From Chamaelirium japonicum (lineage: Eukaryota > Streptophyta > Magnoliopsida > Liliales > Melanthiaceae), in the NCBI GenBank assembly GCA_947650365.1, contig OX393551.1, positions 4,470,001 to 4,534,000 of the forward strand: DNA of 64,000 bases. Direction: 5' to 3'. The notes under the pieces were generated by a model, which saw only the letters and a program-made list of their open reading frames with translations, had not been told where the DNA came from and searched no databases. Each line of letters begins with the position of its first letter. Position 1 is the stretch's first letter. This document shows, piece by piece, positions 37,391 to 43,163 of the stretch. The position numbers were made by a program, and so were the translations under genes.

Positions 37391-37706
37391 TACTTATGCA
37401 ATTACACACCATATTTTACCTATCCTATAGGTTTCATAATTTGATGAAACTTGGTGGGAATGGATCATCCTCACCAAAAATCATCAAAATTTTAGAACTT
37501 TAAAATTTTAAATGTAAGAAGCAAACTTTATCGACCGTTCATTATTACCGTTAATTTGAATAGCATATTTGAAGCACCTAGAAGTTATAGAATTTGATGA
37601 TTATTGGTGAGGATGATCAACTTGGTATAGATAGCATCCCCACCAAGTTTCATCAAATTCTGAAACATCCAGGGCAGATAAAAGGCAACGTGTAATTCCA
37701 TAAGTA
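37391..37706. mobile_element. Foldback element F1
   Basis: About 316 bp. Ends TACTTATGCAATTACAC and GTGTAATTCCATAAGTA are inverted repeats. Inside are inverted copies of TTTCATAATTTGATGAAAC and a centre with ATCGACCGTTCATTATTACC, the same core as F2-F10. (TA)n borders only its right side. Confidence 0.82.
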
Positions 37707-37801
37707 TATATATATATATATATATATATATATATATATATATATATATATATATATATATATATATATATATATATATATATATATATATATATATATA
37801 T
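37705..37801. repeat. (TA)n array 2, between F1 and F2
   Basis: 97 bp of pure TA repeat. Confidence 0.97.
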
Positions 37802-38198
37802 GGGTCGGGTTGGCTGACCCAGCAAATTTTGGCCCAACAATAACCCAGCACCCTTTGATGCACCTAGAGGTTTTAGAATGGACTGATTTTTTTGTAGACA
37901 TGTTGTCTATAATATGTTGATCATCCTCACAAAAAATCAGTACATTCTAAAACCTCTAGGTGCATCAAATGCACTCTTCAAATCAACGGTTTTCGATTGT
38001 TAATTTTAACCGTTGATTTGAAGAGCGTATTTGATGAATCTATAGGTTTTAGAATGGGCTAATTTTTTGTGAGGATGATCAACATACTAGACAACATGTC
38101 TACAAAAAATCAGCCCATTCTAAAACCTCTAGGTGCATTAAAGGGTGCTGGGTTATTTGCTGGGTCAAAATTTGCTAAGTCATCCGATCCTGACCCAC
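37802..38198. mobile_element. Foldback element F2
   Basis: 397 bp, (TA)n on both sides. The left end begins GGGTCGGGT and both arms share GCAAATTTTGRCCCARCAA and AACCCAGCACCCTTT. The motif TTTTAGAATGGRCTGATTTT occurs four times in alternating orientation; the centre is AACGGTTTTCGATTGTTAAT. Confidence 0.88.
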
Positions 38199-38265
38199 AT
38201 ATATATATATATATATATATATATATATATATATATATATATATATATATATACATATATATATA
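38199..38265. repeat. (TA)n array 3, between F2 and F3a
   Basis: 67 bp with one C interruption at 38254. Confidence 0.95.
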
Positions 38266-38652
38266 GGATACGGGGTATAGGATGACGGCCTATTTCGACG
38301 AAATGGGCAGCCACCCATTTGATGCCCCTAGTAGTCTTAGAATGTGCTGCTTTTTTGTGAGCATAAGCATCTTATCTTAGATAGAACACCCACAAAAAAT
38401 CAGCAAATTCTAAAACTTTTAAGGGCATCAAATGTAATATTTCAGATTAACGGTGACAACGAACGCTCGATAAAACTTCTAACATTTGATGCCCCTAGGA
38501 GTTTTAGAATGTGCTGATTTTATGTGGGTGTTCTATCCAATATAAGATACTTATGCTCACAAAAAATCAGCACATTCTAAGACTCCTAAACGCATCAAAT
38601 GGGTGGCTGCCCATTTTTTCGAAATAGGCTGGCAGCTCATTTCCCGTTTCCT
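38266..38652. mobile_element. Foldback element F3a
   Basis: 387 bp. Left end GGATACGGGGTATAGG, right end CATTTCCCGTTTCC. Four alternating copies of TTTTAGAATGTGCTGATTTT-like sequence form two hairpins inside the overall palindrome, with centre ATTAACGGTGACAACGAACG. Same family as F3b (inverted) and F3c. Confidence 0.9.
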
Positions 38653-38705
38653 CTCTCTCTCTCTCTCTATATATATATATATATATATATATATATATAT
38701 ATATA
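38651..38705. repeat. (CT)n followed by (TA)n array 4, between F3a and F4a
   Basis: About 17 bases of CT repeat run into 37 bases of TA repeat. Confidence 0.95.
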
Positions 38706-38852
38706 GGAGCATGCTATGCTGCGGCATGCAGTGCGTGCGGCACTGTACCATAGCCGTCTGATGCACGCGCTGCGTACATCACATGCACGCAGCATTGCAT
38801 CAGACGGCTGCGGTACAGTGCCGCACTTACCGCATGCCGCATTATAGCATTT
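38706..38852. mobile_element. Foldback element F4a, short and GC-rich
   Basis: 147-bp palindrome with arms containing CGGCATGC, GTGCGGCACTGTACC and CCGTCTGATGCA. Bordered by (TA)n on the left and (CT)n then (TA)n on the right. It lacks the F2/F3 core. Second copy: F4b at 41010. Confidence 0.82.
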
Positions 38853-38967
38853 CTCTCTCTCTCTCTCTCTCTATATATATATATATATATATATATATAT
38901 ATATATATATATATAGAGAGAGAGAGAGAGAGAGAGAGAGAAAGATAGAGGGAGAAAGATAGAGAGA
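38853..38967. repeat. (CT)n-(TA)n-(GA)n array 5, between F4a and F5
   Basis: CT repeat, then TA repeat (38872-38915), then GA repeat with a few interruptions: a composite array that is itself nearly palindromic. Confidence 0.93.
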
Positions 38968-39316
38968 GTAGTGATATATTGCGGCCAGGTAACGTGCCGC
39001 TTAATATGCGGCCACCCCCATCCGGGGTATTTTTGGAAAAATTTTTTTTGGGGATTGATCACCCACCCTTGATAGCACACACAAAAAATTTCAGCTCAAT
39101 CCAAGACCTGTAGGCCATCCAAATGTGATTGACTTTTATCGGTCGTTCATTTTTGTCGTCATTTTGATCAACACATTTGGACGGTCTACAGGTCTTGGAT
39201 CGTGCTGAAATTTTTGTGTGTGCTATCCAAGGGTGGGTGATCAATTCCCAAAAATAAAATTCCAAAAATACCCCGGAAGGGGGTGCGGCACGTTACCGGC
39301 CACAATGTATCACTAC
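38968..39316. mobile_element. Foldback element F5
   Basis: 349 bp. Ends GTAGTGATATATTGCGGCC and GGCCACAATGTATCACTAC are inverted repeats. It carries inverted copies of CAAGACCTGTAGGCC and AAATTTCAGC, with the centre TTTTATCGGTCGTTCATTTT, the reverse complement of the F3-type centre. Confidence 0.88.
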
Positions 39317-39466
39317 TATATATATATATATATATATATATATATATATATATATATATATATATATATATATATATATATATATATATATATATATATA
39401 TATATATATATATATATATATATATATATATATATATATATATATATATATATATATATATATATA
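39317..39466. repeat. (TA)n array 6, between F5 and F6
   Basis: 150 bp of pure TA repeat. Confidence 0.97.
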
Positions 39467-41009: not shown

Positions 41010-41159
41010 GGGAAGTGCTGGAATGCGCCATGCGGTGCGTGCGGCATCGCACCGCAGCCGTCTGATGCACTGCTGCGTGCATCGCATGCACGTAGCGCGT
41101 GCATCAGACGGCTGCGGTGCGATGCCGCACGCACCGCATGCCGCATTCTAGCATACCCC
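41010..41159. mobile_element. Foldback element F4b
   Basis: 150-bp GC-rich palindrome, second copy of the F4 family: CATGCGGTGCGTGCGGCATC is mirrored by its complement, with CCGTCTGATGCAC near the centre. (TA)n on both sides. Confidence 0.85.
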
Positions 41160-41206
41160 TATATATATATATATATATATATATATATATATATATATAT
41201 ATATAT
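41160..41206. repeat. (TA)n array 9, between F4b and F7
   Basis: 47 bp of TA repeat. Confidence 0.95.
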
Positions 41207-41475
41207 GGGGAGGGATACTCTTACACATGGCCTCTTACTCATATAGTTACCTATGATCTGGGCCCTCCATTAGATCCCGACTTACGGTTCGGATTAGTTG
41301 GGGAGTTAAAGCAATGGTGTCCGCATTAAATGCCCATATTAAAAGCCCGCATTTAATGTGAACACCATTGCTTTAACTCCCCATCTAATCTGAACCGTAC
41401 GTCGGGATCTAATGGAGGGCCCGGATCATAGGTAACTATATGAGTAAGAGACCATGAGTAAGAGTATCCCTCCCC
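41207..41475. mobile_element. Foldback element F7
   Basis: 269-bp palindrome. GGGGAGGGATACTCTTAC at the left is mirrored at the right, with arms continuing through GATCTGGGCCCTCCATTAGA and GCAATGGTGT to a centre near 41335. It lacks the F2/F3 core, so it is a different family that uses the same kind of target. Confidence 0.87.
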
Positions 41476-41628
41476 TATATATATATATATATATATATAT
41501 ATATATATATATATATATATATATATATATATATATATATATATATATATATATAGAGAGAGAGAGAGAGAGAGAGAGAGAGAGAGCGAGAGAGAGAGAG
41601 AGAAAGAGAGAGAGAGAGAAAGAGAAAG
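41476..41628. repeat. (TA)n-(GA)n array 10, between F7 and F8
   Basis: TA repeat to 41555, then an imperfect GA repeat. Confidence 0.95.
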
Positions 41629-41742
41629 AGATGGCTGTTAAGTTAAGCTGTGAGCTGCCGGTTTATAAAGTGAGCTGCGATTGATTTGCCCGCCCTAGAA
41701 GTTTTTAAATTTGACAAAATTTTATAAGGGTGTTGTCTAGGG

Positions 41743-42305
41743 TGTGGGTGCAAAATTTGGCCAACGCCCAAAGACGGGACCCACTAGCCTTGCATGGGGG
41801 TCCACAAAGACGATAGGGCCCCCAGCCCTGCCCTAGGGGCCCACAAAGACGACGACGGGGGTCCACCAGCCTTGCTTGGAACCTGTTGAAGCGACTGCAG
41901 AAACCGTCCCGAATCCCGGATTTTTCCAAACCTCTATAAATAGCAGACTAGATGTGTTTTTCAGATCGATGATCTGATTTCCAGATCAGACTTTCAAAAA
42001 CCAGAGCTCTGACATATTTCTCTTCTTCTAAGTCAAGTGATACTCGGCCTGTCGAGATCATTGCATTTCAAGTGTTATTGAATTCAGGTTGCACCTTATA
42101 GCACGAAGACGTAGGTTTCGACTGAGCTCCGAGATCACATATCATGTTAACTTTCTCTCATCTACTTCTAAAGCAAAGTCTACAAACACTCAACTACTTC
42201 CAAACTCAAGTCAAAGACACCAACGCTCGAACCACCGACAACCAACATCGAATCGATTAGCTGTTGAGCGGAGTGCTCGGGTCGGCACGAGAATCATCCC
42301 CCACA
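41743..42305 (+). repeat. Solo LTR inside F8
   Basis: 563 bp, TGTGGG...CCCACA, flanked by a perfect 5-bp target duplication TAGGG (41738-41742 and 42306-42310). A TATA-like CTCTATAAATAGC at about 41932-41944 gives the plus orientation. No internal retrotransposon sequence is present, so the element was lost by LTR-LTR recombination. No other copy in this window. Confidence 0.9.
41932..41944 (+). promoter_or_regulatory. TATA box of the solo LTR
   Basis: CTCTATAAATAGC, about 190 bases into the LTR, close to the plant TATA consensus. Confidence 0.7.
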
Positions 42306-42596
42306 TAGGGTAAGATGATCATCCTCACCAATTTTTCTCAAATTCCAAAACTTCTAGGGTCATCAAATGATAGAAGCAAAATTTGCAAAATTAACGGTGA
42401 CTACGGATGACAGACTTTGCTTCTACCATTTGATGACCCCAGAAGTTTTGGAATTTGATGAAAATTTGTGAGGATGATCATCTTACCCTAGACAACACCC
42501 TCACCAAATTTTATCAAATTTCAAAACTTCTAAGGTGGGCTAATCATTCGCAGCTCACTTTTTAAACCGGCAGCTCACCGCTTACTGTAACACTCC

Positions 42597-42776
42597 TCTC
42601 TCTCTCTCTCTCTCTCTCTCTCTCTCTATATATATATATATATATATATATATATATATATATATATATATATATATATATATATATATATATATATATA
42701 TATATATATATATATATATATATATATATATATATATATATATATATATATATATATAAAGAGAGAGAGAGAGAGA
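42597..42776. repeat. (CT)n-(TA)n-(GA)n array 11, between F8 and F9
   Basis: CT repeat to 42626, TA repeat to 42759, then GA repeat: a palindromic composite like array 5. Confidence 0.96.
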
Positions 42777-43163
42777 GGAGTGTTACAGTGAGCTATGAGC
42801 TATAGGAGGAGAAAGTGAGCTAGGACCAAAAATTCTACCCTATAAGTTCGGAATTTGTTAAAATTTTGTAAGTATGTTGTCTAGGGTAAGATGATCATCC
42901 TCACTAATTTTCAACAAATTCCAAATTTTTTAGGGCTATCAAACGTGCTAAGAAAAATTAACAATTATTATGGACGACTGATAAAGTTTCTACCATTTGA
43001 TGACCCTAGAAGTTTTGGAATTTGTTAAGAATTGATGAGGTTGATCATGTTATCCTATACAACACACCCACCAAATTTCAACAAATTTTGAAACATATAG
43101 GGTGGCATTTTCGATCGTAGATCACTTTTTCCTATTATTTCTCATAGCTCACTGTAACACTCC
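42777..43163. mobile_element. Foldback element F9
   Basis: 387 bp. Perfect terminal inverted repeat GGAGTGTTACAGTGAGCT / AGCTCACTGTAACACTCC. Same termini and core as F8 but more decayed; centre ATTAACAATTATTATGGACG. GA repeat on the left, CTCTCTTTCTCTCTC then TATATAT on the right. Confidence 0.88.

What the first reader, a model, noticed from the sequence alone, without database searches (positions are those of the whole stretch)
37391..43163. Ten foldback elements joined end to end by (TA)n microsatellites
F1, F2, F3a, F4a, F5, F6, F3b, F4b, F7, F8 and F9 follow one another with nothing between them but TA repeats (some capped by CT or GA). F3c is a further, separately bracketed copy at 45 kb. 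At least four unrelated end types (F3/F6, F4, F7, F8/F9) share this context, so (TA)n appears to be a common landing site, or the elements seed TA expansion. Rice Micron elements are a known precedent for TA-microsatellite targeting. A serial chain built from several families, each splitting and re-expanding the array, is not something I recognise.
Basis: partly seen in the sequence, partly recalled or inferred. Interest (0 to 1): 0.85.

Follow-up and report, generated by a model that had tools for sequence, protein, structure and literature searches.

The report
Foldback transposons chained by TA repeats
Eleven small hairpin-shaped mobile DNA elements sit end to end, joined by long TA repeats; such chains are already described in other plants, but here the register of the repeats still records how elements were inserted.

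Summary
The chain is real: eleven palindromic elements (not ten) at 37367-43165, joined by (TA)n arrays of 37-180 bp; the outer sides of F1 and F9 lack a clean array. The kind is published: SaTar arrays (PMC5907723), MuTAnT (PMC4486113), pineapple Ac-mMITEs (PMC8449440). In this genome TA lies on both sides of F7 at 20 of 20 loci, of F10 at 18 of 20 and of F1 at 22 of 39, searched without TA in the query. Three results go beyond what I read there. (1) TA slips in 2-bp steps, so the register across an element keeps the parity of its target duplication: odd in F7 (16 of 18) and F10 (18 of 21), with two direct 9-bp duplications; even and phase-fixed in F3 and F4. (2) In F10 the register decides which end grows a GA or CT cap. 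(3) Ends and cores are exchangeable: one core carries three end types, and one end type carries different cores. Two chains sit in satellites whose other sequence has TA runs of at most 10 nt, so arrays probably grew with or after insertion. No transposase partner was found. New variant of a known kind.

The parts
37367..37704 (+). F1 foldback; left end shortened and without TA, right end eroded into the TA array; F7-type ends in full copies
37705..37801 (.). (TA)n array
37802..38198 (+). F2 foldback, GGGTC ends
38199..38265 (.). (TA)n array, one interruption
38266..38651 (+). F3a foldback, GAGGATACGG / GAGGAAACGG ends; CT cap follows
38669..38705 (.). (TA)n array
38706..38852 (-). F4a foldback; CT cap follows
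38873..38915 (.). (TA)n array with CT and GA caps
38967..39316 (+). F5 foldback, GTAGTGATACA ends
39317..39466 (.). (TA)n array
39467..40303 (+). F6 foldback with F3-like ends around a GC-rich interior
40304..40483 (.). (TA)n array
40484..40857 (-). F3b foldback, about 10 nt missing at one end
40858..41009 (.). (TA)n array
41010..41159 (+). F4b foldback
41160..41206 (.). (TA)n array
41207..41475 (+). F7 foldback, GGGGAGGGATACTC ends; register T..T (odd)
41476..41555 (.). (TA)n array, GA cap follows
41632..42596 (+). F8 foldback, interrupted by an LTR-like insert
41743..42305 (.). 563-bp TG..CA insert in F8 with 5-bp duplication TAGGG, solo-LTR-like
42628..42758 (.). (TA)n array with CT cap before it and GA cap after it
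42776..43165 (+). F9 foldback; right flank only degenerate TA
44940..45562 (+). F3c (45075-45460) between its own TA arrays with GA and CT caps
13970..14372 (+). F10: F8-type core with other ends (GAGGAATGGG), lying in an (ATT)n array

Best explanation
These are non-autonomous, TIR-ended transposons, most likely Mutator-like (MULE), that insert by staggered cut-and-paste at TA-rich targets. The duplicated TA then expands by slippage into long arrays on both sides. Those arrays are favoured targets for further members of the same and other families, so a chain grows by adjacent, non-nested insertion. Shown: the chain; its recurrence elsewhere in the genome; TA on both sides of most sampled copies; no foldback inside another foldback in the sample; odd register in the F7 and F10 families; two 9-bp target duplications; fixed A..T register in F3 and F4; in F10, caps only where the register offers an AGAG or CTCT seed; shared cores under different ends. 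Inferred: that the enzyme is a MULE transposase, that F3 and F4 make an even-length duplication at a palindromic TATATATATA-like target, and that array growth after insertion is general.
For: Inverted arms far above shuffles. TA on both sides at F7 20 of 20, F10 18 of 20, F1 22 of 39 loci, with no TA in the queries. Register odd in F7 16 of 18 (binomial p 0.0013) and F10 18 of 21 (p 0.0015); a mixed set of GG-ended elements 16 of 20 (p 0.012; it includes four F7 and three F4 copies). Nine-bp duplications read by eye: L063 TTTAATATT, not in a microsatellite; L091 TTCATATAT. Chains L016 and L026 sit in satellites whose longest TA run is 10 and 8 nt. Published relatives are MULEs with 9- or 10-bp duplications. 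At least 150 MULE-domain matches in this genome (capped).
Against: No autonomous element with these ends was found; the one MULE locus read (L126) has no TA array and no long inverted repeat enclosing the transposase. F1 register is weak: 9 odd, 6 even of 15, duplicated loci not removed. F10 at 13970 in (ATT)n implies a duplication of 2 mod 3 (8 or 11), not 9 (my arithmetic). The satellite argument rests on two sites; at L016 about 52 bp of a monomer are also missing, and at L026 another insert lies beside the chain on the right.
Confidence: 0.78

Rival explanations
1. Circle and recombination model (proposed for SaTars in PMC5907723): elements circulate with microsatellite filler between their ends and enter existing TA arrays by homologous recombination, without a target duplication.
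For: F3 behaves as if it carried its flanks: fixed A..T register in 35 of 38 and a nearly constant CT cap at the 3' end (40 of 43).
Against: F7 and F10 show an odd register in both phases (F7 A..A 10 and T..T 6; F10 T..T 10 and A..A 8) and 9-bp duplications occur outside long arrays. Insertion without a duplication predicts an even register; recombination in any register predicts no preference.
Confidence: 0.12
2. Pre-existing long TA microsatellites are the landing sites from the first insertion on; the elements do not cause the arrays.
For: TA arrays without such elements exist (for example window 36095-36182); PMC5907723 reports unoccupied TA domains in indica at 20 japonica sites.
Against: In the satellites around the L016 and L026 chains no TA run exceeds 10 and 8 nt in 6286 and 5002 bases; L091 shows a 9-bp duplication with only a short TA on one side.
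Confidence: 0.2
3. The chain is an assembly artefact or one block duplicated around the genome.
For: TA arrays are hard to assemble; N runs abut arrays in L045 and L050.
Against: Chains differ in order and membership between loci on many contigs; F3 copies are star-like in a tree of 24 with a median end branch of 0.013.
Confidence: 0.03

Closest known systems
SaTar elements of guayule, rice, sorghum, citrus (PMC5907723; abstract, whole Results and part 1 of the Discussion read)
   Same: Small TIR elements of several families in (TA)n, joined in non-nested multimers; fusions by deletion; other microsatellites in a minority; some members with a duplication outside microsatellites.
   Different: There the families in an array are called unrelated and many flanks are judged inconsistent with cut-and-paste. 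Here the register supports an odd duplication for F7 and F10, and families share cores under different ends. Autonomous partners were found there, not here.
MuTAnT, Medicago truncatula (PMC4486113; abstract, Results, Discussion read)
   Same: Foldback built of four similar segments, GGGG/CCCC ends, (TA)n targets, 9-bp duplications outside perfect arrays, more TA repeats at occupied than at empty sites.
   Different: One family with an identified transposase; chains of several families are not described in the sections read.
Ac-mMITEs, pineapple (PMC8449440; abstract, part 1 of Results, Discussion read)
   Same: (TA)n flanks, 46.1% of full-length copies in non-nested clusters, 9/10-bp duplications, GA/TC caps attributed to slippage.
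   Different: The sections read do not say why a cap is usually on one side; the odd-register rule offers a reason. There TIRs are shared between families; here cores are shared with different ends, and also the reverse.
CMITE, corals (PMC2872659; abstract, one Results passage, Discussion read)
   Same: Interior more conserved between families than the TIRs; tandem arrays.
   Different: piggyBac-type with TTAA duplications; no TA arrays.
Galileo, Drosophila mojavensis (PMC3573991; passages only)
   Same: Chimeric foldback elements with TIRs of one subfamily around the interior of another.
   Different: P superfamily, not in microsatellites.
Micron (rice) and TAFT (maize)
   Same: Small elements flanked by (TA)n; for the maize element PMC5907723 cites empty sites of 6-8 bp TA that expanded after insertion.
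   Different: Primary papers not seen; known here only through the citing papers.

Membership tests
SaTar-type arrays | Small elements defined by TIRs, without coding capacity | tested here: met
   130 of 162 inter-TA segments are terminal foldbacks; coding capacity was not tested systematically
SaTar-type arrays | Most copies flanked by microsatellites | tested here: met
   F7 20 of 20, F10 18 of 20 and F1 22 of 39 TA on both sides; these are the best-scoring copies only
SaTar-type arrays | Multimers of different families joined by (TA)n | tested here: met
SaTar-type arrays | No element interrupts another | tested here: met
   11 family queries on 270.8 kb: 9 rows of split collinear matches; I read 4 as the LTR-like insert in F8 and 5 as microsatellite or cross-family matches
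MULE (Mutator-like) | Target duplication of 8-11 bp | tested here: met
   9 bp at L063 and L091 (by eye); odd register in F7 and F10. For F3 and F4 only even parity is known
MULE (Mutator-like) | Long TIRs (usual, not universal) | tested here: met
   matching arms of 68-192 alignment columns in 12 of 12 copies
MULE (Mutator-like) | Ends shared with an element that encodes a MULE transposase | tested here: inconclusive
   150 scored matches of 1214 candidates; one locus read, no relation seen
Stowaway / Tc1-mariner | TA dinucleotide duplication | tested here: not met
   9-bp duplications and odd register in F7, F10; not excluded for F3 and F4 by register alone
Micron (rice) | Sequence similarity to Micron | not tested
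   no rice sequence was compared

The most novel reading that the evidence does not exclude
Ends and core are separate, exchangeable modules of one transposon clan. The repeated inner segment (CCTAGAAGTTTTGGAATTTGATG..), rather than the end, may be what the transposase recognises, so one enzyme could mobilise families with unrelated ends. Each insertion grows TA arrays that become docking sites for the whole clan, and neighbouring elements in the arrays recombine into new end/core combinations. TA arrays would then be self-extending nurseries for new transposon families.
Probability: 0.25. Interest if true: 0.75.

Novelty: new variant of a known kind. Interest (0 to 1): 0.5.

Why it matters
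Target duplications of transposons in microsatellites have been called unreadable because the flank is repetitive. If slippage is in whole units, the register still gives the duplication length modulo 2 (or modulo 3 in a trinucleotide array). That lets cut-and-paste be told apart from recombination in any genome with such elements, and it offers a simple reason why GA/CT caps usually sit on one side. Shared cores under unrelated ends would explain why so many end types use the same target, and would make classification of such elements by TIR alone misleading.

Tried and rejected
Tandem duplication of one element as the source of the chain: rejected, neighbours belong to different families. 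Unrelated families throughout: rejected, shared cores. Stowaway-type TA duplication: rejected for F7 and F10 on register and 9-bp duplications. Stretch ACTAGTATATA in L053, L054, L085, L098 taken first as a shared landing repeat: rejected, it looks like a Helitron 3' end with hairpin and CTAG (the hallmark is recalled, not from a call). Automatic duplication search returned none for 20 F1 loci because the query ended inside the true ends; the two duplications were then read by eye after the ends were extended. Empty sites by comparing flanks among fetched loci: useful only for the satellites. An intact MULE locus as autonomous partner (L126): no relation seen; the match list printed was cut at 3000 characters and held only CT-stretch matches. 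A random sample of the genome and an unbiased sample of TA arrays were planned and never obtained. Searches for F2, F4, F5 and a TA pattern did not complete; those families are judged on copies lying in the F3-centred loci. The 144-copy count (139 with dinucleotide repeats on both sides, 4 on one, 1 on none) is circular, because its query set was defined by TA flanks; I do not use it as evidence of preference.
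Full report
Where it is. The window is part of a 1.52-Gb genome with twelve long contigs (C1-C12, 69.9-137.3 Mb where the length was shown) and 3253 contigs in all. It is taken to be a plant from its size and gene content (inference); the species was not identified.

The chain. Eleven foldback elements lie at 37367-43165: F1, F2, F3a, F4a, F5, F6, F3b, F4b, F7, F8, F9. They are joined by TA arrays of 37-180 bp, some capped by CT or GA. Arm alignment scores are 79-262 against shuffle maxima of 21-30 (100 shuffles each) in 12 of 12 copies, F3c included. 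F8 holds a 563-bp TG..CA insert with the 5-bp duplication TAGGG; F9 shows the uninterrupted reading at the matching place.

Elsewhere in the genome. The query (38000-39000) held F3 with parts of its neighbours, and its matches include TA, so loci picked from it lean towards chains. In 20 such loci of 8 kb plus the window, 89 of 100 segments of 80-1500 bp between TA arrays are foldbacks and 76 have arms starting within 25 nt of both ends. With 18 further loci of 2.6 kb, 130 of 162 segments are terminal foldbacks, and 31 of 37 loci with a foldback, window included, hold chains of two or more, 16 of 37 of three or more. Of 270 array edges, 213 are followed by G when read into the neighbouring sequence. 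Three families were then searched with queries without TA (40 scored of 1873-3263 candidates each, so only the closest copies are seen). TA was found on both sides at 20 of 20 F7 loci, 18 of 20 F10 loci and 22 of 39 F1 loci. Of the other F1 loci, 11 have TA on one side, 5 have none (3 of them other repeats on both sides, 1 on one side, and L063 with none), and 1 has Ns. In 270.8 kb the only element that I read as split is F8, by the LTR-like insert.

Register test. Slippage adds or removes whole TA units, so the last base before an element and the first base after it keep the parity of the target duplication. F7: same base on both sides (odd) in 16 of 18 copies with intact ends, out of 20. F10: 18 of 21 scored of 23 copies at 20 loci. 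Mixed GG-ended elements with equal G counts: 16 of 20 (four F7, three F4 among them). F1 is weaker: 9 odd, 6 even; four of the even ones (L075, L081-L083) look like copies of one event, and L054/L085 and L062/L067 may be duplicates as well. Two copies show the duplication directly: L063 (F1) TTTAATATT at a site without microsatellite, and L091 (F10) TTCATATAT (by eye). The window F10 copy at 13970 lies in (ATT)n, where the register gives 2 mod 3, so 8 or 11 rather than 9. F3 and F4 differ: A before and T after in 35 of 38 F3 and 11 of 14 F4 copies, never T before and A after. An odd-length TA duplication and its reverse complement are mirror images, so both phases must occur; an even-length one is its own reverse complement, so an enzyme can prefer one phase. 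I therefore infer a 9-bp class (F7, F10, probably F2) and an 8- or 10-bp class (F3, F4).

Caps. Across all edges, 71 of 71 GA caps follow an A. F3 does not fit simple slippage: three or more TC units at 40 of 43 3' ends, three or more GA units at 8 of 41 5' ends (Fisher p 2e-12). Its CT cap may travel with the element.

Did the array come first? The L016 chain sits in a 152-bp satellite and the L026 chain in a 160-bp satellite. In 6286 and 5002 bases of those satellites the longest alternating TA run is 10 and 8 nt, and 10 matching monomer sites in L016 have 0-6 nt. Arrays of 34-109 units occur only at the chains. A monomer that expanded before it was hit is not excluded. At L016 about 52 bp of monomer are missing; at L026 another insert lies on the right.

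Ends and cores. F1, F2, F3, F8 and F9 share an internal core with blastn E down to 4e-18; F5 shares it at scores above 100 shuffles with F1, F2 and F3 but at or barely above them with F8 and F9. The F8-type core (81-89% identity over 244-291 bp) occurs with three end types. In six pairs with different ends the outer two 30-nt windows on each side are 37-67% identical (shuffled null: mean 48, 95th percentile 60, maximum 70), while windows of the core are 63-100%, mostly 80 or more. The window itself holds such a pair, F8 and F10. The reverse is seen too: F1 and F7 share ends (score 33, shuffle maximum 24) but not cores (17 against 27), and F3 and F6 likewise (35 against 26; 18 against 30); one end type lies on 400-bp and on 609-666-bp elements with different interiors.

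Age. Median divergence from the consensus is 0.8% for F10 (n 20), 1.8% for F3 (38), 2.2% for F7 (20) and 4.7% for F1 (33). These are closest copies, so the values are low estimates of spread; the order suggests separate bursts.

Enzyme. The genome has at least 150 MULE-domain matches, many in long open frames. One intact locus was read (L126) and shows no relation. MULE membership thus rests on duplication length, long TIRs and resemblance to published families.

Literature. Six searches of an open-access library gave PMC5907723, PMC4486113 and PMC8449440 for the chain and target, and PMC2872659 and PMC3573991 for exchange between interior and TIRs. I found no use of repeat register to infer duplication length in the sections read; no search was made for that idea by itself.

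Verdict. The chain is a member of a known kind. The register evidence and the end/core exchange are additions to it.

Noticed in passing
window 41743-42305: 563-bp TG..CA insert with 5-bp duplication TAGGG inside F8, solo-LTR-like.
   Followed up: partly
window 13970-14372: A 398-bp-class foldback (F10) in an (ATT)n array; the family is very uniform across the genome, 95-97% to the window copy at the scored loci.
   Followed up: yes
L019 3291, L021 6379, L025 3245, L027 4843, L038 1639, L053 208, L097 35, L098 604: Helitron-like 3' ends (hairpin, then CTAG) directly abut TA arrays, so another transposon class may share these arrays.
   Followed up: partly
window 3158-8374, 52705-54518, 57085-62306: Related long repeats, 82-85% identical; the first ends 2 bp before the (TA)31 array at 8377-8439.
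   Followed up: no
L075, L081, L082, L083: F1 with the same flanks on C28 and three times on C46 about 27.6 kb apart, a segmental duplication.
   Followed up: no
L026 about 5308-5475: Insert with CACTA-like ends (CACTATACC..GGTGTAGTG) beside the chain.
   Followed up: no
L126 4788-5293: Almost perfect palindrome, 243-nt arms 98% complementary, near a MULE transposase and not in TA.
   Followed up: no
window 39606-40178: GC-rich interior of F6 with CT and GA runs at its edges; may be captured host sequence, as in Pack-MULEs (recalled idea, not tested).
   Followed up: no
L045, L050: N runs next to TA arrays, so array lengths in this assembly are not all reliable.
   Followed up: no
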